Assembly (NCBI RefSeq): GCF_007678255.1
Contig: NZ_VEED01000035.1
Coordinates: 1 to 26,945 of the forward strand
Reading direction: 5' to 3'
Length of the DNA: 26,945 nt
Source: Bacillus sp. X1(2014)
Lineage (GTDB): Bacteria; Bacillota; Bacilli; Bacillales_B; DSM-18226
Below, in pieces: positions 2,606-17,046 of the stretch; positions within the stretch are counted from its first letter, which is position 1; each line of letters starts with the position of its first letter. The notes beneath the pieces were generated by a model that was given only the letters and a program-made list of their open reading frames with translations, had not been told where the DNA came from and did no database searches. A program made the position numbers and the translations under genes.

Positions 2606-2653
2606 GGGGTCAGTCCCCCGCTGCTTTAAAGCAGTGGGGGACTGACCCTTTTT
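2606..2653. repeat. REPIN-like palindrome 2, bidirectional terminator
   Basis: Second near-identical copy: GGGGTCAGTCCCCCGCTGC, a short TTTAA loop, then GCAGTGGGGGACTGACCC. It has an A-run before it and a T-run after it. It sits exactly between two convergent genes (permease stop at 2601, minus-strand gene ending at 2656), so it can terminate both. Confidence 0.88.
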
Positions 2654-4926: not shown

Positions 4927-4943
4927 GGGGGTCAGACCCCACT
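4927..4943. repeat. Solo REP-like half palindrome
   Basis: GGGGGTCAGACCCCACT has the GTCAGA centre of the left end of the RAYT element at 16291 rather than the GTCAGT of the three REPINs. It is a single hairpin without the second arm. Confidence 0.65.
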
Positions 4944-7935: not shown

Positions 7936-7971
7936 AGTTTCAGAAAATACTGTAATTGGACCCTAAAATTC

Positions 7972-8055
7972 GATAGAGGCAAACTTACTGAAAGATGAGG
8001 ACGCAAAGCTACGGGTCTAAGGTTATAAACCATAACGATGATCGCCGGGTTACCG
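7972..8055 (+). ncRNA. Class I c-di-GMP riboswitch (GEMM-I)
   Basis: The conserved blocks of the GEMM-I aptamer are present in order. GAGGCAAAC is followed by a hairpin with a GAAA tetraloop (ACTGAAAGAT), then GGACGCAAAGC, ACGGGTCTAAGG (the tetraloop receptor side), a variable stem, and CGCCGGGTTACCGAA. The last block and GGACGCAAAGC closely match the Vibrio Vc2 aptamer as I remember it. It lies in the 5' leader of a gene for GGDEF and EAL domains, the enzymes that make and break c-di-GMP, so the ligand and target agree. The coding frame that appears to begin at 8038 lies inside this RNA and is not the real start. Confidence 0.92.
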
Positions 8056-8075
8056 AATAATGATACGATCTCATC

Positions 8076-8108
8076 GGCTATTTCTAAAAGAAATAGCCTT
8101 ATTTTTTT
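8076..8108 (+). terminator. Riboswitch expression platform terminator
   Basis: Perfect arms GGCTATTTC and GAAATAGCC around TAAAA, followed by TTATTTTTTT, form an intrinsic terminator between the aptamer and the start codon. An alternative stem is possible between CGATGATCG (8036-8044, aptamer 3' part) and CGATCTCATCG (8066-8076, touching the terminator base). This would couple ligand binding to termination. The direction of the switch cannot be decided by eye. Confidence 0.85.
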
Positions 8109-8133
8109 AATACATTTAGATTGGGGTATTCAA

Positions 8134-11100
8134 ATGAATGTTGGATCTATTGCTTCCCTATTCGAAGAAAATACAGCACATAAAATTTTAGATAGCCCAG
8201 AACTTACGATTTGGTATAAAGACTTACAAGAGGATACTTTATGGGTTTCTAAAGGTATTGCTTCCATATATGGGTATCCGCAAAAATATTTCTTCGAGAA
8301 TTCTCTAATATGGTTAGAGTCGGTTTATTCGGAAGACAAATGGATGATTGAAAATGCAATAAGCAGGCAATTAGTAGGGGAGTCAACAGATGTAGAATAT
8401 CGAATCATTCGTTCCGATGGTGAAGTTCGATGGGTGCAAGATCGTTCGCATCCAATCTTAGATGAAGTAGGAAAGGTTATCGCCATAAGCGGTTCTGTAC
8501 ATGACATAACTTTACAAAAAAGAGAAACTTTGAAATTACAAGAACAGCTTAAAATGACCGAAAACAGTTATCGTTCACTAATAGAAAGTGAAGACCGATA
8601 CCGAAGTTTAGTAGAAGTTTCACCAACTCCTATTATTGTTCATCAAGAAGGAAGAATCGTTCTTGTAAATCAAGCTGGATTAGAGGGGCTTGGTGCCGTT
8701 TATGATGATCAGCTGGTTGGCAGGGATCTCTTTGACTTTATTCATCCGGACAGTAGGCAGATCTTATCGGACCGTTTTAAGGAAGCGTTAGTCAATGGAA
8801 AAGTCAGCCCAAGTGAATGTAAATTAATTACCTTAGATGGAAAGACCATAGATGTAGAAGCATCTGGAACCAAAATTTTATTTAATGGGAAACCAGCCAT
8901 TCTGGCGGTTGGAATAGATATTACAGAGAAGAAAGCCTTGCTTGAACAATTAGATAAAAATGACCAACGGTATAAATCACTATTTGAACATAATGCCAAT
9001 AGTGTTTACTCGTTTGATTTAGATGGTAATTTTACTAGCTGTAATAGTGTTTGTGCAGAAGAAACGGGGTATCGTAAGGAAGAATTATTAAAACCGATGA
9101 ATTTTAAGGAAATAATTGTCCCTGAAAAACTAGAAGAAGGTTTAGATCATTTTGTACGATGCATAAAAGGCGAGGCACAAAATTTTAGAACCTCTATATT
9201 AAATCGGAAGGGTTCCATCATTCATTTAAATGTGACAGTGGTACCTATTTTCGTAAATGGAGAAGTAAATGGTGTTTTTGGGATTGCCCAGAACATTACC
9301 AAACAAGTGGAAATAGAAATAGCAAATGAACATATGGCTTACCATGATTATTTAACAGGTTTGCCAAATCGCAATAAGTTAAATTCAAGTCTAACAAGCG
9401 AACTGGTCAGTGCGGCAAAAAGAAAACAAAAATTGGCTGTTTTATTTATGGATCTTGATCGGTTTAAAGTGGTCAATGATACCCTGGGTCACAATACAGG
9501 AGACGAATTGCTTAAAGAAGTAGCCAAACGGCTTACCTTTTCTTTAAAAGATAAAGACATCGTTTTTAGGCAAGGCGGGGATGAATTTATTATCATTCTA
9601 AAAGACGCTGATCGAGATGTGGCTGCAAAAGTGTGCAGGAGAATGGTAGATGTGGTGGCTGCTCCATTTAGGATTCAAAATTATGATATTTATACTCGTC
9701 CGAGCATGGGGGTCAGTATATTCCCAGAAGATGGAGAAACGGTGGAAACCTTAATTAAGCATGCTGATTTTGCCATGTACCAAGCTAAAAAGGAAGGGAA
9801 AAATCATTTTAAGTTTTATTCATCGAATAATCAGGCTTCCATTATAAATCCCCTGGTATTGGAAATGGATCTTCATAAAGCGATTCAACAAGAGGAGTTA
9901 CTCCTCCATTATCAGCCGAAAATGAGTTTAAAAACAGGGAAAATTGTAGGTGTAGAAGCATTAATCCGCTGGAATCATCCAGAATGGGGCCAAGTAGCAC
10001 CTGGAAACTTTATTCCGATTGCAGAGGAAACAGGATTAATAATTCCTATTGGTGAGTGGGCGTTATACACTGCTTGTAAGCAAAATAAAGAGTGGCAGCA
10101 AAAAGGATTTACCACCACGATTTCTGTCAATCTATCAGCCAAGCAATTTACACTTTCTAATTTAGATGAAACAGTTGCTAGGATCCTGAACGAGACAAGG
10201 CTGGAGCCCCAATATTTAGAATTAGAGATTACCGAAAGCATAACAGCGAATATAGAACGCACCATTACAACCTTACAAAAGCTTAAAAGTCTTGGAGTTC
10301 GCCTTAGTATTGATGATTTTGGGACAGGCTTTAGTTCTTTAAATTATTTACAAAAGTTTCCTTTGGATACTTTGAAAATTGATCAGTCCTTTGTACGGGG
10401 ACTGCAAAATAATTCGAATGATGAAACGATTGTAAAAACCATTATTTCAATGGCCCATAATTTGAATTTAAACGTGGTTGCTGAAGGAATAGAAACAAAG
10501 GAGCAACTAATGTTTTTGCAGGAACATCTTTGTGATGAAGGACAAGGGTTTCTATTCACCAAACCACTTTCAGCAAACGAATTAGAAAATATGATTGTTA
10601 GCATTCAGAAAATAGTCAAGGATTATGGGATCTCGCAGGATGTTAATGAACGCATGTGGTCCGAAGAATTAGTACGTATCGCAAAAAAAGAATTAAATGA
10701 AACGATTCGCCTGCAGCAGGGGATGACCTTTAAATATAAAAAAATAAACGGCAAATTTATTCACACCTTGTGTGATGGTGAATTATTGTATCGCTTTGGC
10801 CTTATTCCGAGTCTTGTAGTAGGAAAACAGTTGAGTGATTTTCTTCCGAAAGAGAAAGTAGAGAATAAGCAAGTATACTACCAAAGAGCGTGGAATGGGG
10901 AAGAACATGTTCATTATGAAGATGAGCTTAATGGAATTTCATATCTAGTCGCGTTAAGACCCATTAAACGTGGTGGTGAAGTGGTGGAGGTAATTGGCTC
11001 ATGTATCGATATTACCGACCGTAAGAATGCTGAAAAAGCCTTGCTTGAGAGTGAAAGTAAATATCGGTTGATTGCTGAAAACATGACAGATTTAATTATT

Positions 11101-12081
11101 TTATTCGATTTAAATAGGAAAGGAATCTATGCATCCCCATCACACGAATCCGTCCTTGGGTACACACCAGAATATTTTGAAGGAAATAGTACGTTAAATC
11201 TTATTCATCCTGAGGATGTGGACGCGGCTATGGACCAATTCGCGGAGGTGATCAGGACTAAATTACCTGCAAAAGCTGAGGTGAGGCTGTTACATGCAAA
11301 TGGTGAATGGAAGTTATTTGATTGTACAGGAACACCTGTCGTAGATGAAAATGACGAATTTGAACACATTATGGTTGTAGCAAAAGATATTACAGAGAAA
11401 AGAAAAGCGGAAGAAATGCTATGGAATGCTGAGAAGTTGTCATTAGTTGGTGAGTTGGCCGCAGGGGTTGCACATGAGATTAGAAATCCACTAACATCTA
11501 TAAAAGGGTTTATCCAATTATTCCAAGAAGGTATTGTAAAACATGAATACTTTAACGTCATCCTGACGGAGTTTAATCGGATTGAGGAGATCATAAAAGA
11601 ATTTCTTTCTCTTGCCAAACCACAAGAAATCCAACCTAAGTTAGTTCATATCCCTTCATTGTTAAAAGAAATTGAAACATTACTCGAATCAGAAACGATC
11701 CTTAATGATGTTGACTTTTCAGTTGAAATGGAAACGGATCTCCCATTGGTTATGTGTGATGCCAATCAAATGAAACAAGTATTAATCAATCTTTGCAAGA
11801 ATAGTTTTGAAGCAACGGATAAAAAGAATAATGGTTTCATAGAAGTCAAAGCTTTTATCAATCAAGAACATCTCACCATCCAGATAAGGGATAATGGGAT
11901 CGGAATAAGCGAAGAACGATTAAAAAGACTAGGTGAACCTTTCTATAGCAACAAAGAAAAAGGGACGGGATTAGGGGTGATGACCTGTTTCAGGATTATA
12001 AGACAACATAAAGGAACACTGAAATTTGAAAGTAAAGAAAATCAAGGTACAACGGCTGAGATTAGGCTGCCACTGGCTTAA
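8134..12081 (+). CDS. PAS-GGDEF-EAL-PAS-histidine kinase fusion
   Basis: A soluble multidomain signalling protein of about 1315 residues. Domain order: three PAS domains (about 10-130, 150-270, 275-395), GGDEF (about 400-565, intact GGDEF at 481), EAL (about 575-820), two more PAS domains (about 860-970, 975-1095), then HisKA and HATPase (about 1098-1315). The EAL domain has EAL at 608 plus the E, DDFGTGFSS and AEGIET motifs expected of an active phosphodiesterase. The product-inhibition RxxD of the GGDEF domain reads KDKD, so feedback inhibition may be lost. The kinase has H1114 in AHEIRNPL, an N box, DNGIGI and KGTGLG, and resembles Bacillus sporulation kinases (KinA/KinE type). Start ATG 8134 follows the riboswitch terminator with GGGG at 8123. 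It is expected both to turn over c-di-GMP and to phosphorylate a response regulator, perhaps Spo0F. The partner is inference. Confidence 0.9.
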   Translation: MNVGSIASLFEENTAHKILDSPELTIWYKDLQEDTLWVSKGIASIYGYPQKYFFENSLIWLESVYSEDKWMIENAISRQLVGESTDVEYRIIRSDGEVRWVQDRSHPILDEVGKVIAISGSVHDITLQKRETLKLQEQLKMTENSYRSLIESEDRYRSLVEVSPTPIIVHQEGRIVLVNQAGLEGLGAVYDDQLVGRDLFDFIHPDSRQILSDRFKEALVNGKVSPSECKLITLDGKTIDVEASGTKILFNGKPAILAVGIDITEKKALLEQLDKNDQRYKSLFEHNANSVYSFDLDGNFTSCNSVCAEETGYRKEELLKPMNFKEIIVPEKLEEGLDHFVRCIKGEAQNFRTSILNRKGSIIHLNVTVVPIFVNGEVNGVFGIAQNITKQVEIEIANEHMAYHDYLTGLPNRNKLNSSLTSELVSAAKRKQKLAVLFMDLDRFKVVNDTLGHNTGDELLKEVAKRLTFSLKDKDIVFRQGGDEFIIILKDADRDVAAKVCRRMVDVVAAPFRIQNYDIYTRPSMGVSIFPEDGETVETLIKHADFAMYQAKKEGKNHFKFYSSNNQASIINPLVLEMDLHKAIQQEELLLHYQPKMSLKTGKIVGVEALIRWNHPEWGQVAPGNFIPIAEETGLIIPIGEWALYTACKQNKEWQQKGFTTTISVNLSAKQFTLSNLDETVARILNETRLEPQYLELEITESITANIERTITTLQKLKSLGVRLSIDDFGTGFSSLNYLQKFPLDTLKIDQSFVRGLQNNSNDETIVKTIISMAHNLNLNVVAEGIETKEQLMFLQEHLCDEGQGFLFTKPLSANELENMIVSIQKIVKDYGISQDVNERMWSEELVRIAKKELNETIRLQQGMTFKYKKINGKFIHTLCDGELLYRFGLIPSLVVGKQLSDFLPKEKVENKQVYYQRAWNGEEHVHYEDELNGISYLVALRPIKRGGEVVEVIGSCIDITDRKNAEKALLESESKYRLIAENMTDLIILFDLNRKGIYASPSHESVLGYTPEYFEGNSTLNLIHPEDVDAAMDQFAEVIRTKLPAKAEVRLLHANGEWKLFDCTGTPVVDENDEFEHIMVVAKDITEKRKAEEMLWNAEKLSLVGELAAGVAHEIRNPLTSIKGFIQLFQEGIVKHEYFNVILTEFNRIEEIIKEFLSLAKPQEIQPKLVHIPSLLKEIETLLESETILNDVDFSVEMETDLPLVMCDANQMKQVLINLCKNSFEATDKKNNGFIEVKAFINQEHLTIQIRDNGIGISEERLKRLGEPFYSNKEKGTGLGVMTCFRIIRQHKGTLKFESKENQGTTAEIRLPLA

Positions 12082-12097
12082 GGTGATAGGAAAAAAA

Positions 12098-12139
12098 GGG
12101 TCAGTCCCCCACTGCGTTAAAGCAGTGGGGGACTGACCC
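12098..12139. repeat. REPIN-like palindrome 3, bidirectional terminator
   Basis: Third copy of the palindrome, with arms GGGTCAGTCCCCCACTGC and GCAGTGGGGGACTGACCC around a GTTAAA centre, preceded by A7 and followed by TTTAAAA. It lies between the convergent kinase and germination operon ends (12081 and 12150). Confidence 0.88.
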
Positions 12140-12149
12140 TTTAAAAGCT

Positions 12150-12374
12150 TTACTCCATTATTTTTCTTAAAGGACCAAAAATGTTTTGAAGAAGAGTGAG
12201 AGGTCCTGGTATGTTTTCTAGGTTGAAAAAGGAAACCAATTCTGATAATAGCAGGATAGCTATAAATGTTATTCGATCTGCCTTCGACGCTTTTTTGAGT
12301 CTCTTCCACTCGAATAACACAATGATCACAATAAGTCCTTGTATGCCGAATACTGTGCCCCAACTCCATTGCAT
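12150..12374 (-). CDS. Small two-helix germinant receptor D-type subunit
   Basis: A 74-residue membrane protein with a hydrophobic segment near the N-terminus (FGIQGLIVIIVLFEW), a short basic loop (KRLKKASKADR) and a second segment (ITFIAILLLSELVSFF). Its ATG overlaps the stop of the upstream C-subunit gene (TAATG), and GGTGAAGGAG lies just before it. Small two-TM 'D' proteins are known next to some Bacillus GerA-type operons (e.g. with gerK, gerU), where they modulate germination. Position, size and topology all fit, and no catalytic motif is expected. It is the last gene of the operon. Confidence 0.7.
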   Translation of the reverse strand: MQWSWGTVFGIQGLIVIIVLFEWKRLKKASKADRITFIAILLLSELVSFFNLENIPGPLTLLQNIFGPLRKIME

Positions 12375-13549
12375 TACTCCTTCACCTCGTCTCTAGGAAG
12401 GGCTGCGGGCGGGCCAATGTAACCAGGTCTTCTTATTTTTGCATTCACTGTTATATGAACCTCGACTTCTGGGAACTTTTCTTCCCATCGGTCCTCTACT
12501 TTTTTCCACTCGTTCGGGTATTGTTGATGAAATTTCCTCCCAAAATCGATGACATCTGCTTTGAATTCTTTTTGAAGCTTTTCAACTGTTTGGGCTACTC
12601 TTTCCTTTAGGGCGGCTTCATATTCTTCCTGGATATTCATTATGACATCTTCATTCATAAGGTTTAGATGCGTTTCGTTTTGAACAATATCTCCCTCAAT
12701 CGAAATATTTAGATGCATCATCCAGCGATTACCTTTGATTTTAGGTCTAAAACTCATCTTTCCTAACGAAGGTGTCATCGTAATTTTACCGTCCTCACCT
12801 TTCGGCTTAACGGATATGGTGCTCCTTTTCACCTCGTCCTTTAACCATAGTAAGCCACGGGTCTCCTTCATGTTTAACGTTCCGACCATTTTATCCTTCT
12901 TATACACAGCCGTTCCCTCAATAACAGGTATGGTTTCATATAATTTCCTAGCCTTCTCCTTTGAGATCAACGTTTTTATATAAGGCATAGACACGCTCTC
13001 ACTCTCGCCCATTAACCCCATGTCGACATCTCTTAGTGTCGTAATCATTCCATATTCATGTTGTGATAATTTACTCAGTGCAACCCCTGAATACCTTTCT
13101 AAAGGTGGAATTAATGTAAGAATTTCACTTGCTTTCCCATTACTTACATATAGTAGTGAATTGCCTCTTGGTTTGGGATGGCGAGCTAAATAGTCTATTT
13201 GCTCGCGTATACCGTTTTTAGCCAGCTCGTCTCCAAAAATATAAACTTTACATTGACCCCAGAACAGTCTTCTGGGTACATTGAGTTGTAACTTGGAAAT
13301 GGCATTTGCAAGATTATCTCCTGTTCCTTCACGAACAAAGGTGGAGGCTGCACTTGGATCCTCTCCTGTTTGTCCGCTTACAATGGCACGTGGGATAAAT
13401 AGCTGGACTGAGATTTTAGTTTTTCCATCTTCTAGCCGGTCGATGGCCGCCGCCGTAATAATGGCGAGATCTGGAAGTTCCACTTGATCCCAGCAGCCAG
13501 AAAGAGTGGGAATACAAAAGCACATGATGGAAAGTAGAATCTTCTTCAA
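12374..13549 (-). CDS. Germinant receptor C subunit, GerAC/GerKC family lipoprotein
   Basis: A 391-residue lipoprotein. The signal peptide (MKKILLSIMCFCIPTL) ends in the lipobox LSGC with C19 as the lipidation site, followed by the family hallmark WDQ-ELPDLAII. Family features further on include the ARHPKPRGNSLLYVSNG region and the conserved C-terminal domain, in which FGRKFHQQYPNEWKKVEDRW is the typical motif. C subunits sit on the outer face of the spore inner membrane together with the A and B subunits. The TTG start overlaps the stop of the B gene (TTGA), with AAGGAGTGAG upstream. Length is normal. Confidence 0.92.
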   Translation of the reverse strand: MKKILLSIMCFCIPTLSGCWDQVELPDLAIITAAAIDRLEDGKTKISVQLFIPRAIVSGQTGEDPSAASTFVREGTGDNLANAISKLQLNVPRRLFWGQCKVYIFGDELAKNGIREQIDYLARHPKPRGNSLLYVSNGKASEILTLIPPLERYSGVALSKLSQHEYGMITTLRDVDMGLMGESESVSMPYIKTLISKEKARKLYETIPVIEGTAVYKKDKMVGTLNMKETRGLLWLKDEVKRSTISVKPKGEDGKITMTPSLGKMSFRPKIKGNRWMMHLNISIEGDIVQNETHLNLMNEDVIMNIQEEYEAALKERVAQTVEKLQKEFKADVIDFGRKFHQQYPNEWKKVEDRWEEKFPEVEVHITVNAKIRRPGYIGPPAALPRDEVKE

Positions 13550-14637
13550 CGGCTCTCACTCCTTTTCCTGCGGACCAGTGCAATGATGAGCAAGAAAAGG
13601 GGCAGGATTGTCTGAACCATAACGAAATAAAAAGGATGAATTCTTGTAAAGTAGTCTACTAATACGACAATATTAGGAATGTCCCAATAACTTAATAAAA
13701 TGATAAGCAGACTTAAGGGAAACACAACCAGCCGGTAATTGGAAAGTCTTAATAATTGCGCAAGCCCCAAACTAGCTACATATAAAAAAACAGTTACTTT
13801 AACAAAATTCCCGAGTACCCAGGAAGCTGTAATGATGACTTCAAAGTTTTCAAAAAATCCCATTACATTTATGGCACGGACGACCGAGTATACAGGATAT
13901 AATTGATTGACGGATGAAACACCTAATAAAGTGAGTACAAAAAAATGAATATATAAAAGAATAAGCATGACGAAAAGGGCCGCTTTCATCCCTGACTTTA
14001 GACCCTTTTTGGGACTATTGATAAAAGGATAAATGAATGCTAAAAGAAAAAATTCACTGAACCATGCTGTTTGTGCAAATCCTCCCTTCATAACCGGGAG
14101 GACCCCATTCTCTAGAATAGGAAGCATAAAAGTAACATCAATATCCTTCATTAATAATAGGAGAGACACAGATGTACTTAGGTATAATGTCGTGCAAATA
14201 ACGGCGGATCGGGCAATCACTTCAATCCCGCCCCGCACTGCTAGTGCGCTTACAAACATGATGCTGATGGAAAATACAAGGCTAGGGGTTTCAAGCATCA
14301 CGTTACCGGTGATGAAATCAGAATATTGTCTGATGATTAGCCCTGTATTATGAATATAAAAGGAAACGAGGAAAAACCCAAATAGCTTTCCGACTGCTTT
14401 CCCAAGAATTTTTTCACTATATTGTATGGGATTCAACTTTGGAAATAATTGATGGAGCTTCCAAACGATGTATACGGTTATAAAACCGATTAAAGAGCCT
14501 ACGATCGGCGTCATCCACATATCATGCTGCGCAAATTTTCCAGCGATAGACGGAATGGAAAGAACACCTGTAGCAATAATGGTTGGAACCATCATAATCT
14601 CCATTTGAAGGTTTGATATTTTACCCTTTTCTAGCAT
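13546..14637 (-). CDS. Germinant receptor B subunit, GerAB/GerKB permease family
   Basis: Endospore germination permease of the amino acid/polyamine transporter superfamily. Nearly the whole chain is hydrophobic, with about ten membrane segments, and it begins in the family style (MLEKGKISNLQMEIMM). It ends in a basic cytosolic tail (RRKRSESR). B subunits contribute the germinant-binding pocket in characterised receptors. The frame is open from 14658, but GGCGGTGA lies at the right distance from ATG 14637 and the alignment-like start MLEKGKIS supports it. It starts about 25 bases after the A gene and overlaps the C gene start, so the operon is tightly coupled. The germinant specificity cannot be told. 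Confidence 0.9.
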   Translation of the reverse strand: MLEKGKISNLQMEIMMVPTIIATGVLSIPSIAGKFAQHDMWMTPIVGSLIGFITVYIVWKLHQLFPKLNPIQYSEKILGKAVGKLFGFFLVSFYIHNTGLIIRQYSDFITGNVMLETPSLVFSISIMFVSALAVRGGIEVIARSAVICTTLYLSTSVSLLLLMKDIDVTFMLPILENGVLPVMKGGFAQTAWFSEFFLLAFIYPFINSPKKGLKSGMKAALFVMLILLYIHFFVLTLLGVSSVNQLYPVYSVVRAINVMGFFENFEVIITASWVLGNFVKVTVFLYVASLGLAQLLRLSNYRLVVFPLSLLIILLSYWDIPNIVVLVDYFTRIHPFYFVMVQTILPLFLLIIALVRRKRSESR

Positions 14638-14661
14638 GTTCATTTCACCGCCATTCATGCC

Positions 14662-16224
14662 TTATTCATTGCTATTATTAGGACCAGGCTTTACATTTGT
14701 TCCTTGTCTTACCGCATTAAATTCTCCTGTCAGGTGAGGACGGCTGTTCATTTTCCATAAAGGAGAACGAATGAGCGTATCCTTCAACGGATGTTTTTGT
14801 AGTGTAGCGATAGGACTCAAGTAAGGGAGCCCAAATGATCTTAACGTTGATAGATGGATAACGAGCACAATTAACGCAAGCATGACACCGATTAACCCTG
14901 CAAAGCCTGCAAGAATGATGATTGGGAACCTTAGTAATCGGATGGCTAGACCAATTGAATAGCGAGGGACCATAAAGGAAGCAATCCCTGTGATACTCAC
15001 CACGATAATCATGGGTGCAGAAACAATCCCTGCTTGAACAGCTGCCTGTCCAATGACAAGTGCCCCTACAATACTGACAGCTGAACCGACTTGTCTAGGA
15101 AGACGTATTCCAGCCTCCCTCAATGCTTCAAAGGTAATTTCCATCATAATCGCTTCAACTATGCCGGGAAAGGGGACGCCTTCTCTAGCGGAAGCTATAC
15201 TTAGCAACAGGTCTGATGGGATCATTTCCTGATGAAATGTTATAATGGCAACATATAGGGAAGGGAAAAATAAGGATATTACTAAAAAAAGAAACCTGAG
15301 AGATCGGATAAATGTCCCTATCCAAAATCGTTCGTAATAGTCCTCTTGGGATTGAAATAAACTAAAAAAACTCACTGGTGCCACTAAGGAAAAGGGGGTC
15401 CCTTCAATCAGCAAAACGGCTCTGCCCTCTAGTAAATTAGCACAAACCACATCAGGACGCTCCGTATACAAAATTTGCGGAAAGGGCGAATAGGGATTAT
15501 CCTCAATGAATTGTTCGATATATCCACTTTCCAACACCCCATCAATATTAATTCGGTTAAGACGATTTTCAAATTCCTCAATCAGAGTTTTATCTGCTAA
15601 TCCCTCTATAAAAGAAATCACAACCTTGGTCTTCGTATATTTTCCTATATGGACGGTCTTCATTTTCAGAGCAGGGTCTTTAATAATCCGACGCAATAAA
15701 GATGTATTTACACCAAGAGATTCAGTGAAACCTTCTCTTGGTCCTCGAACAGAGGTTTCAGCCTGTGGCTCTTCAATTGAGCGTTTTTCAAATTTCAGTA
15801 AACCTAATGAAAAAGCCTCTTCAAATCCATCAAACAGCAAAACTGGGTTTCCAGTGCCAATGGCATCAATACAGGCGGGAATCGTAGTGACCCTGTTGAT
15901 GTTTGAAATGGGTAATCTATTTTTTATAGAAAACAGGAAGTCTGTTTCATCAAATTCACTTTTATCTAACAGTGTCTCAAGCACTTGTTGTTCTAGCTTT
16001 TGAGTATCAGTTAATCCTTCTATATAGATAATGGCGGCGTCCTTTCCATTAACAACAAAAGAACGAAAAACGACATCTGAACTATCCTTGTACAGAGAGG
16101 AAAAGAATTGTATATTTCTTTCAAGTGTTTTCGATAAAGGGATGTCCTGTGATAAAGTCTGATGTGGTGCTTTATGATCCTTCGCTATCTTCTTCTTTAA
16201 AGGACCCCTTCTAACACGAATCAC
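14662..16224 (-). CDS. Germinant receptor A subunit, GerAA/GerKA family
   Basis: A subunit of a GerA-type receptor. It has a soluble N-terminal half of about 290 residues with two related subdomains, containing the familiar [19 protein letters not shown] stretch and [20 protein letters not shown]. Four to five membrane segments follow, with the family motif [38 protein letters not shown]. The frame is open from a GTG at 16248, but the AAGGAGGA of that stretch is itself the ribosome binding site for GTG 16224 (VIRVRRGP), so I prefer the shorter form of 520 residues. First gene of the operon. The promoter must lie in the short space up to the RAYT element at 16291 or beyond it. Confidence 0.92.
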   Translation of the reverse strand: [520 protein letters not shown]

Positions 16225-16290
16225 CTCATTTTCCTCCTTTTTCTTCACATATATATTAATTTCCTTATATTTTTAAAAAGTATTCATGTG

Positions 16291-17046
16291 GGGGGTCAGA
16301 CCCCCACTAAGCTAAAAGTTTAACGCGTTAATGTGATATAGGACAAAAGTATATTTGTTTTTTTTTTGTGTAATAAATTTTTATCGAAATATAGAGGAAA
16401 AAAGTGGATTTTGTTGAATAATGTATTAGGTAAAAAGAATAATGATAGAAAGAGAGGCGTTATGCTCAATTGTCGAGAAAACATCGCGTTTGGTTTCCTG
16501 GTGCCATGTATCATATTACAAATCGTGGCAATCGAAGGTCATCTATTTTTTATGATGATTATGATTGTATAGTCTACTTTAAGATCTTAGAAGAAGCTCG
16601 TCGTTGTTATCCTTTTCATCTCCACACATACTGTCTCATGACAAACCACGTTCATCTACAAATCGAAACCATTGACCACCATCCAAAAGATATGATGAAA
16701 ATGCTAAATTCTAGATATGCAATGTATTTTAATAAACGTCATGAACTAGTAGGCCATGTTTTTCAAGGAAGATATGGAGCAGAACTTATTGATTCCCAAG
16801 CCTATTTCTTAGATGTTAGTAGGTATATTCATTTGAATCCTGTAGAGGCAAACATGGTCAAATCCCCAAGTGAATACCGGTGGAGCAGCTATACTGCTTT
16901 CATATCGGATTTTGTTAATCCTCATATTACAACCACAAAAATCTTATCTCATTTTCCAGAATCACCAAAAGAGAACTACCGCAAATTTGTTGAAGGATCA
17001 TTCACTTTAACACGTTAAACTTTTACCTGAGCGGGGGACTGACCCC
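16291..17046. mobile_element. RAYT element with REP-type inverted ends
   Basis: The transposase gene is bounded by inverted repeats of about 45 bases. Reading inwards, the left end (16291-16337) is the GGGGTCAGACCCCC palindrome, then CTAAGCTAAAAGTTTAACG, then GTTAATGTGA. The right end (17002-17046), read on the minus strand, is GGGGTCAGTCCCCC, then a CTCAGGTAAAAGTTTAACG block, then GTTAAAGTGA. The ends carry the same GTCAG(T/A) palindromes as the three REPINs and the solo copy at 4927. The left end also contains a perfect TTAACGCGTTAA palindrome. The last codons and the stop of the transposase lie inside the right end. No clear target-site duplication is seen, as expected for Y1 enzymes. Confidence 0.8.
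16470..17018 (+). CDS. REP-associated tyrosine transposase (RAYT, Y1 HUH family)
   Basis: A 182-residue single-domain Y1 transposase related to IS200/IS605 TnpA. It has the RAYT-type start MYHITNRGNRR (about residues 13-23), the metal-binding HUH motif as NHVHLQI (H60 and H62), and GHVFQGRYG. It also has RYIHLNPVEANMV, whose Y119 is a candidate catalytic tyrosine, and YRWSSY. All key positions look intact, so it may be active. Start TTG 16470, with GAGAGG twelve bases upstream. RAYTs are known to act on REP palindromes as single-stranded DNA; matching palindromes flank this gene and occur elsewhere in the window. Confidence 0.9.
   Translation: MSRKHRVWFPGAMYHITNRGNRRSSIFYDDYDCIVYFKILEEARRCYPFHLHTYCLMTNHVHLQIETIDHHPKDMMKMLNSRYAMYFNKRHELVGHVFQGRYGAELIDSQAYFLDVSRYIHLNPVEANMVKSPSEYRWSSYTAFISDFVNPHITTTKILSHFPESPKENYRKFVEGSFTLTR

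What the first reader, a model, noticed from the sequence alone, without database searches (positions are those of the whole stretch)
16291..17046. RAYT transposase bounded by inverted ends that match the window's REPIN palindromes
The gene has about 45-bp inverted ends (GGGGTCAG palindrome, TAAAAGTTTAACG block, GTTAA-GTGA block), and its own stop codon lies in the right end. The same GTCAG(T/A) palindromes occur as three paired REPINs and one solo copy within 15 kb. RAYT/REP systems are best known in Proteobacteria. Here an intact-looking Bacillus RAYT, its IS-like ends and its probable non-autonomous offspring can be seen together, so the element may still move as a unit.
Basis: partly seen in the sequence, partly recalled or inferred. 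Interest (0 to 1): 0.75.

Follow-up and report, generated by a model that had tools for sequence, protein, structure and literature searches.

The report
RAYT transposase with local REPIN cloud
A Bacillus-family bacterium carries a small DNA-cutting transposase whose flanking ends match short hairpin repeats nearby; in relatives such repeats crowd around the transposase gene rather than being evenly scattered, which hints that they spread over short distances.

Summary
In detail: an intact-looking 182-aa HUH/Y1 transposase gene (RAYT) with 45-nt inverted ends (39 of 45 positions), three 42-nt REPINs and one solo palindrome of matching type, well above chance. It is a known kind: a TIR-flanked RAYT ("TIRYT", GGGGWSAS ends; PMC3733652), common in Bacillaceae. 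RAYT-end and surrounding palindrome types match locus by locus (0.75 vs 0.12 shuffled, 38 of 81 loci). Not seen in the papers I searched: the palindromes crowd around the RAYT. In ten Neobacillus genomes the 40 kb around it hold 100 palindromes outside its own ends against 11.0 expected; Cytobacillus and Lentibacillus agree. Duganella and Massilia relatives look scattered, and REPINs of P. fluorescens were reported as random. Local spread is my best reading, but RAYT-free clusters exist and two of four RAYT-free genomes are just as REP-rich. "Moves as a unit" is only partly supported: its edges are synteny breaks and relatives sit elsewhere, but copies are few and no clean empty site was found. 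REP-bounded gene-block shuffling looked striking against one sister genome but was not upheld in a larger controlled test.

The parts
16470..17018 (+). RAYT gene, 182 aa, TTG start, HUH/Y1 transposase
   Evidence: PF01797 E 2.8e-13; purifying selection
16647..16655 (+). HxH motif (H60, H62) of the HUH active site
   Evidence: invariant in the 29-protein alignment
16824..16826 (+). codon of the presumed catalytic Y119
   Evidence: invariant in the 29-protein alignment; role inferred from the family
16292..16336 (+). left inverted end (GGGGTCAGACCCCC... TAAAAGTTTAACG)
   Evidence: 45 nt, 87% complementary to the right end
17002..17046 (-). right inverted end; contains the RAYT stop codon
643..684 (.). 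REPIN 1, 42 nt, just 3' of ORF 239-634
   Evidence: ssDNA fold z -8.8
2607..2648 (.). REPIN 2, 42 nt, just 3' of ORF 1786-2601
   Evidence: z -9.6
12098..12139 (.). REPIN 3, 42 nt, just 3' of ORF 8038-12081
   Evidence: z -11.5
4928..4940 (.). solo REP palindrome GGGGTCAGACCCC, left-end variant
   Evidence: sits at a block border against G080
12087..17044 (.). segment (REPIN 3, ger-like operon, RAYT) that stands where sister genome G080 has 207 bp
   Evidence: window 12086 and 17045 are G080 neighbours

Best explanation
A TIR-flanked RAYT (TIRYT kind) with its cognate REP/REPIN family in a Neobacillus-like bacterium. Inferred mechanism: the HUH/Y1 protein recognises its own ends and the matching REP hairpins in single-stranded DNA, cuts beside them and rejoins them, so that short end-pairs (REPINs of about 42 or 50 nt) spread as non-autonomous offspring, mostly over short chromosomal distances and into DNA just behind stop codons. 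Shown here: intact catalytic motifs, inverted ends, type match between ends and palindromes, high REP density around RAYTs, 3'-end placement. Inferred: cutting, joining, copying and the short range of movement.
For: Ends and REPINs. Type match 0.747 vs 0.120 shuffled, 0 of 10000 as high, 38 of 81 loci usable, a few from one genome. REP density: G084 132 of 231 hits within 200 kb of the RAYT (19.1 expected), G087 111 of 168 (13.8), G085 96 of 163 (12.6). Ten more Neobacillus genomes: 112 vs 11.8 in 40 kb, 100 vs 11.0 without the 1 kb on either side of the RAYT, each genome 6.5-fold or more. Five distant 20-kb controls: 0, 0, 1, 3, 0 vs 9, 14, 6, 6, 11 around the RAYT. Random placement of the RAYT on the real REP map, own ends dropped: as many REPs within 50 kb at only 0.35-1.5% of positions in five genomes of three genera, combined p 3.6e-7. 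Nearest stop codon within 50 bp for 126 of 192 REP loci, nearest start for 29.
Against: REP clusters without a RAYT: G044 at 1.34-1.49 and 2.06-2.12 Mb, G071 at 0.61-0.80 Mb, G080. Two RAYT-free genomes are REP-rich. Density does not fall smoothly in G087 and G085, and in Lentibacillus the densest spots lie beside the RAYT (20-kb window: top 2.1%). REPs are old and stable: at most 8 of 131 colinear loci look empty, so no fresh movement was seen. Elements of the Duganella relative are not clustered.
Confidence: 0.6

Rival explanations
1. Regional tolerance: REPs and RAYTs both collect in plastic chromosome regions, so the crowding shows where insertions survive, not local movement.
For: REP clusters without RAYT exist. 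The 400-kb stretches compared are plastic: 148-200 of about 371 called genes have a match between any two of the three.
Against: REP loci are next to shared DNA more often than other intergenic points: neither flank found in the other genome for 88 of 436 REP cases against 383 of 924 controls. In G084 density falls over a few kb from the RAYT (16, 10, 6.7, 3 per 10 kb).
Confidence: 0.3
2. The RAYT with its ends is a still mobile IS-like unit.
For: Discrete ends that coincide with synteny breaks on both sides; close relatives at different surroundings in the stretches compared; two copies in G082.
Against: Few copies, no near-identical second copy, several decayed; in G084, G085 and G087 the RAYT is inherited in place; no clean empty site found (limited).
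Confidence: 0.2
3. REPs bound gene blocks that are shuffled as cassettes (by RAYT, or by recombination between REPs).
For: Against G080 all three REPINs, the solo REP and both RAYT edges lie at block borders. Block 693-2600 starts at the same base, within about 2 nt, beside three different neighbours in window, G080 and G070. In G085 the left neighbour of one shared REPIN differs from G084 and G087.
Against: Controlled test in three other species: broken REP junctions OR 0.98-2.7, 1 of 6 comparisons below p 0.05; with gene neighbours OR 0.69-3.0, 2 of 6 below 0.05. Some window breaks have no REP (for example 18029/18248, 20055, 26465).
Confidence: 0.12
4. The REPINs are ordinary intrinsic terminators, unrelated to the RAYT.
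For: They directly follow stop codons, are flanked by A and T runs and score as the strongest terminator-like sites.
Against: Locus-specific sequence match to RAYT ends and crowding around RAYTs are not expected of terminators. They may still serve as terminators.
Confidence: 0.04

Closest known systems
TIRtron / TIRYT (PMC3733652, 2013; section 16 and passages read, supplements not seen)
   Same: RAYT-like gene between inverted repeats with GGGGWSAS motif; some TIR families exist as dimers; one TIR may overlap the gene.
   Different: The main text does not contain 'Firmicutes' and names Bacillus only for bcr1. It says most REP families are spread throughout the genome, with T. roseum clustered in blocks as exception; it reports no crowding of TIR repeats around the gene in the passages I read.
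TnpAY1 subclass 2.1 (Quentin et al. 2018, PMC6006769; abstract, sections 10, 12, 22 and passages read)
   Same: That paper says subclass 2.1 probably corresponds to the TIRYTs.
   Different: Subclass 2.1 is described with a C-terminal HTH-like extension and no REP-like neighbours; the window protein has 182 aa, no second Pfam domain at E 0.001 and a REP family. Subclass not established here.
REPIN/RAYT of Pseudomonas and E. coli (PMC3116915, PMC8266576, PMC8049555; passages read)
   Same: REP pairs in inverted order, cognate to a single RAYT, in extragenic space.
   Different: Those REPs have a GTAG foot; doublets are reported as randomly distributed in P. fluorescens SBW25. Here there is no GTAG and the REPs crowd around the RAYT.
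IS200/IS605 insertion sequences
   Same: HUH/Y1 single-strand transposase family (PF01797).
   Different: IS elements occur in near-identical copies; this unit does not.

Membership tests
RAYT / TnpAREP (HUH Y1) | HUH motif and catalytic tyrosine in a Y1 domain | tested here: met
   PF01797, H60/H62/Y119 invariant in 29 proteins; nearest solved structure 4ER8 TnpArep, E 0.003
RAYT / TnpAREP (HUH Y1) | curated model NF047646 at its cut-off | tested here: not met
   72 bits against a cut-off of 80: near but below; the claim rests on Pfam, motifs and cognate REPs
RAYT / TnpAREP (HUH Y1) | cognate REP family around the gene | tested here: met
   type match 0.747 vs 0.120
RAYT / TnpAREP (HUH Y1) | GTAG tetranucleotide at the REP foot and residues that read it | tested here: not met
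   ends read GGGGTCAG; W94, E100, H101, R104 of 4ER8 align with F98, A104, E105, D108, Q95 is kept (weak alignment; roles)
RAYT / TnpAREP (HUH Y1) | cuts and joins single-stranded REP DNA | not testable with these tools
   needs purified protein
TIRYT / TIRtron | inverted repeats around the gene with GGGGWSAS | tested here: met
   GGGGTCAG in both 45-nt ends
TnpAY1 subclass 2.1 | C-terminal HTH-like extension | tested here: not met
   182 aa, only PF01797 at residues 12-121 at E 0.001
REPIN | two REPs in inverted order forming a hairpin, repeated in the genome | tested here: met
   three 42-nt pairs in the window; repeated in relatives; own genome not held
IS200/IS605 insertion sequence | multiple near-identical copies or empty sites | tested here: inconclusive
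   no near-identical copies in 61 relatives; own genome not held; no empty site in a capped search

The most novel reading that the evidence does not exclude
In Bacillaceae, RAYT-borne REPs spread by short-range single-strand transposition, so each RAYT is surrounded by a cloud of its own REPs whose centre records its present or past position; clouds without a RAYT then mark lost RAYTs, and dense clouds supply edges for local rearrangement of gene blocks.
Probability: 0.4. Interest if true: 0.75.

Novelty: new variant of a known kind. Interest (0 to 1): 0.58.

Why it matters
A published model takes as premise that RAYTs disseminate their REPs throughout the host genome (PMC3686654, figure legend seen), and how REPs move is unresolved. 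REP density that peaks at the RAYT would be a quantitative trace of the mechanism, readable from sequence and testable in easily grown soil bacteria. It would also show that TIR-flanked RAYTs can have large REPIN families outside the Proteobacteria.

Tried and rejected
Cassette shuffling at REPs: striking in window vs G080, not upheld in the larger controlled test. Plain terminators as the whole story. Phage or plasmid carriage: no phage match; 24 plasmid records, all under 60% identity. REPIN empty sites among G084, G085, G087: at most 8 of 131 colinear loci, several with doubtful alignments, so no target rule could be read. One search used a poor 12-mer and was replaced. Left/right bias of the cloud: 46/31, 40/37, 32/32 REP loci, no clear bias. 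The letters GGGGTCAG with 'transposase' brought, by titles and abstracts, only unrelated papers. One search failed in its BLAST step and was redone. Limits: G001 was the discovery case and is not in the combined test; G079 and G082 were looked at together with it because they hold RAYT copies; G084, G085, G087 share one inherited RAYT locus and only G084 is in the combined test, with 100 of its 118 forward sites. Of the ten genomes, G044 and G071 had already been searched. Controls were fetched for 5 of those 10, at half size. ORFs come from a simple script; 26 of 218 REP loci inside ORF calls were dropped from the distance count. The type match uses the 38 of 81 loci that have palindromes both near and far.

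Full report
What is there. No genome is held for the window itself, so genome-wide statements are about relatives. The RAYT ORF 16470-17018 is intact, PF01797, below the cut-off of NF047646, with H60, H62 and Y119 invariant in 29 chosen proteins and low dN/dS. Its ends are 45 nt inverted repeats, 87%. Three 42-nt REPINs and one solo palindrome of the same type lie in the window; GGGTCAG is 11 vs 1.45 expected.

Family. 45 of 81 loci (window plus 80 relatives) have a palindrome core of this kind within 400 bp of the RAYT, and Massilia, Duganella, an Atribacteria bin and a Nitrospirae bin show GGGGTCAGGTC inverted ends. PMC3733652 described TIR-flanked RAYTs with GGGGWSAS, so by its ends the element is a TIRYT. 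It lacks the GTAG foot, and four E. coli residues discussed for reading GTAG or the neighbouring region are not kept. It lacks the C-terminal domain of subclass 2.1. REPINs in the fetched Bacillaceae loci share a plan: mostly 42 or 50 nt between arms, often with a TTAA centre.

Cognate pairing. In the 38 loci with palindromes both within 400 bp and more than 1 kb from the RAYT, near and far types agree at 0.747 on average, against 0.120 when loci are shuffled, highest shuffle 0.323. Some loci share a genome, so they are not all independent.

The crowding. N. cucumis (G001) showed it first: 9 of 11 distinct sites, two of them the RAYT's own ends, lie within 17 kb in 6 Mb (sites merged by me). 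In G084, 132 of 231 hits lie within 200 kb of the RAYT (19.1 expected), falling from 16 to 2 per 10 kb; G087 and G085, which have the same RAYT locus, show the same excess but not a smooth fall. With own ends dropped and pairs merged, the counts within 50 kb are 30 of 95 (G084, partial list), 5 of 8 (G079), 6 of 10 (G082), 6 of 7 (Cytobacillus gottheilii, G012) and 21 of 41 (Lentibacillus, G028), where 0.13-1.97 are expected; only 0.35-1.5% of chromosome positions do as well (lists). For ten further Neobacillus genomes, mostly single large contigs with a RAYT of about 50% identity, the 40 kb around the RAYT hold 112 palindromes vs 11.8 expected, or 100 vs 11.0 without the 1 kb on either side of the RAYT. 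Five controls about 2 Mb away gave 0, 0, 1, 3, 0 per 20 kb against 9, 14, 6, 6, 11 around the RAYT.

Contrast. In Duganella alba (G094, draft) 66 hits, mostly inverted pairs 45-74 bases apart, are spread over many contigs; on C33, which I take from matching coordinates to be the RAYT contig, only the RAYT unit itself is hit. Massilia (G093) has 18 hits, three at the RAYT unit, one 27 kb away, the rest scattered. Bertels and Rainey report REP doublets as randomly distributed in P. fluorescens. PMC3733652 says most REP families are spread throughout the genome, with T. [quoted passage not shown] its tie to the RAYT is what I did not find described.

Against a simple story. Clusters without RAYT exist: G044 and G071, and G080, where 14 of 24 distinct sites lie in 5.51-5.66 Mb although one search finds no RAYT there. 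Of four RAYT-free genomes two hold 200 and 185 palindromes, two hold 26 and 8. Lost RAYTs would explain this: G080 carries left-end-like remnants, and its cluster covers the region where its sister, the window, has the RAYT. That is inference. REPs are stable: at most 8 of 131 colinear loci look empty, so I saw no recent movement.

Rearrangements. Against G080 all window REPs and both RAYT edges lie at block borders; 12087-17044 (REPIN 3, ger-like operon, RAYT) stands where G080 has 207 bp. G080 has blocks A and C joined by one REPIN where the window has REPIN, block B, REPIN. But other breaks have no REP, and in three other species REP junctions were not reliably more often broken than other intergenic junctions. 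I keep it as a lead.

Placement. REPs lie a median 11 bp from the nearest stop codon, within 50 bp for 126 of 192, and are enriched between convergent genes (OR 2.0, p 0.001; divergent OR 0.67, p 0.09). The window REPINs score as the strongest terminator-like sites. Insertion preference, selection and use as terminators cannot be told apart here.

Literature. Searches: RAYT+REPIN+Bacillus, GGGGTCAG+transposase, RAYT+REPIN, comM+RAYT, REPIN+gene cassette (59), TnpA REP or REPtron, local hopping+insertion sequence+REP, REP-associated tyrosine transposase+Mg chelatase, REP-associated+tyrosine transposase+Firmicutes+inverted repeat (106). In these listings and in the sections and passages read from PMC3116915, PMC8049555, PMC3686654, PMC3733652, PMC6006769 and PMC8266576 I saw no report of REPs crowding around their RAYT. 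The library is open-access only and supplements were not read, so this is no proof of absence.

Noticed in passing
L208:10103-12238 and other RAYT loci: A comM/YifB-like gene (Mg_chelatase domains) stands next to the RAYT, usually directly downstream on the same strand, in 41 of 119 RAYT loci examined (some loci repeat one place, a few are fragments or the reverse order), from Neobacillus to Clostridium and Lachnospiraceae. The window RAYT lacks it. Two paper searches for the pair found nothing.
   Followed up: partly
7968-8057: A c-di-GMP-I riboswitch (Rfam RF01051, 78 bits) precedes the PAS/GGDEF/EAL/histidine kinase gene called at 8038-12081, whose true start is therefore probably further down.
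   Followed up: no
4713, 4883, 19404, 19576: A second repeat family with the palindrome CAAACGTTTG, in pairs about 170 bp apart; similar sequence recurs in G080.
   Followed up: no
693-2600: Block with two ORFs (ABC transporter-like by sequence, not scanned) whose left edge is the same base, within about 2 nt, beside three different neighbours in window, G080 and G070; in G080 a RAYT left-end-like REP stands just outside it.
   Followed up: partly
L012:9658-9890: Cytobacillus gottheilii has REP palindromes in a direct tandem array of 42-bp period beside its RAYT; all 11 genome hits of that variant point the same way.
   Followed up: no
L093, L094, L095 near position 2040: In three species the right-hand REPIN overlaps or abuts the 3' end of the RAYT reading frame, much as the right end does in the window.
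   Followed up: no
G084, G085, G087 (400-kb stretches): REP loci have shared DNA on at least one side more often than other intergenic points (neither flank found: 88 of 436 vs 383 of 924), so they do not prefer novel DNA.
   Followed up: partly
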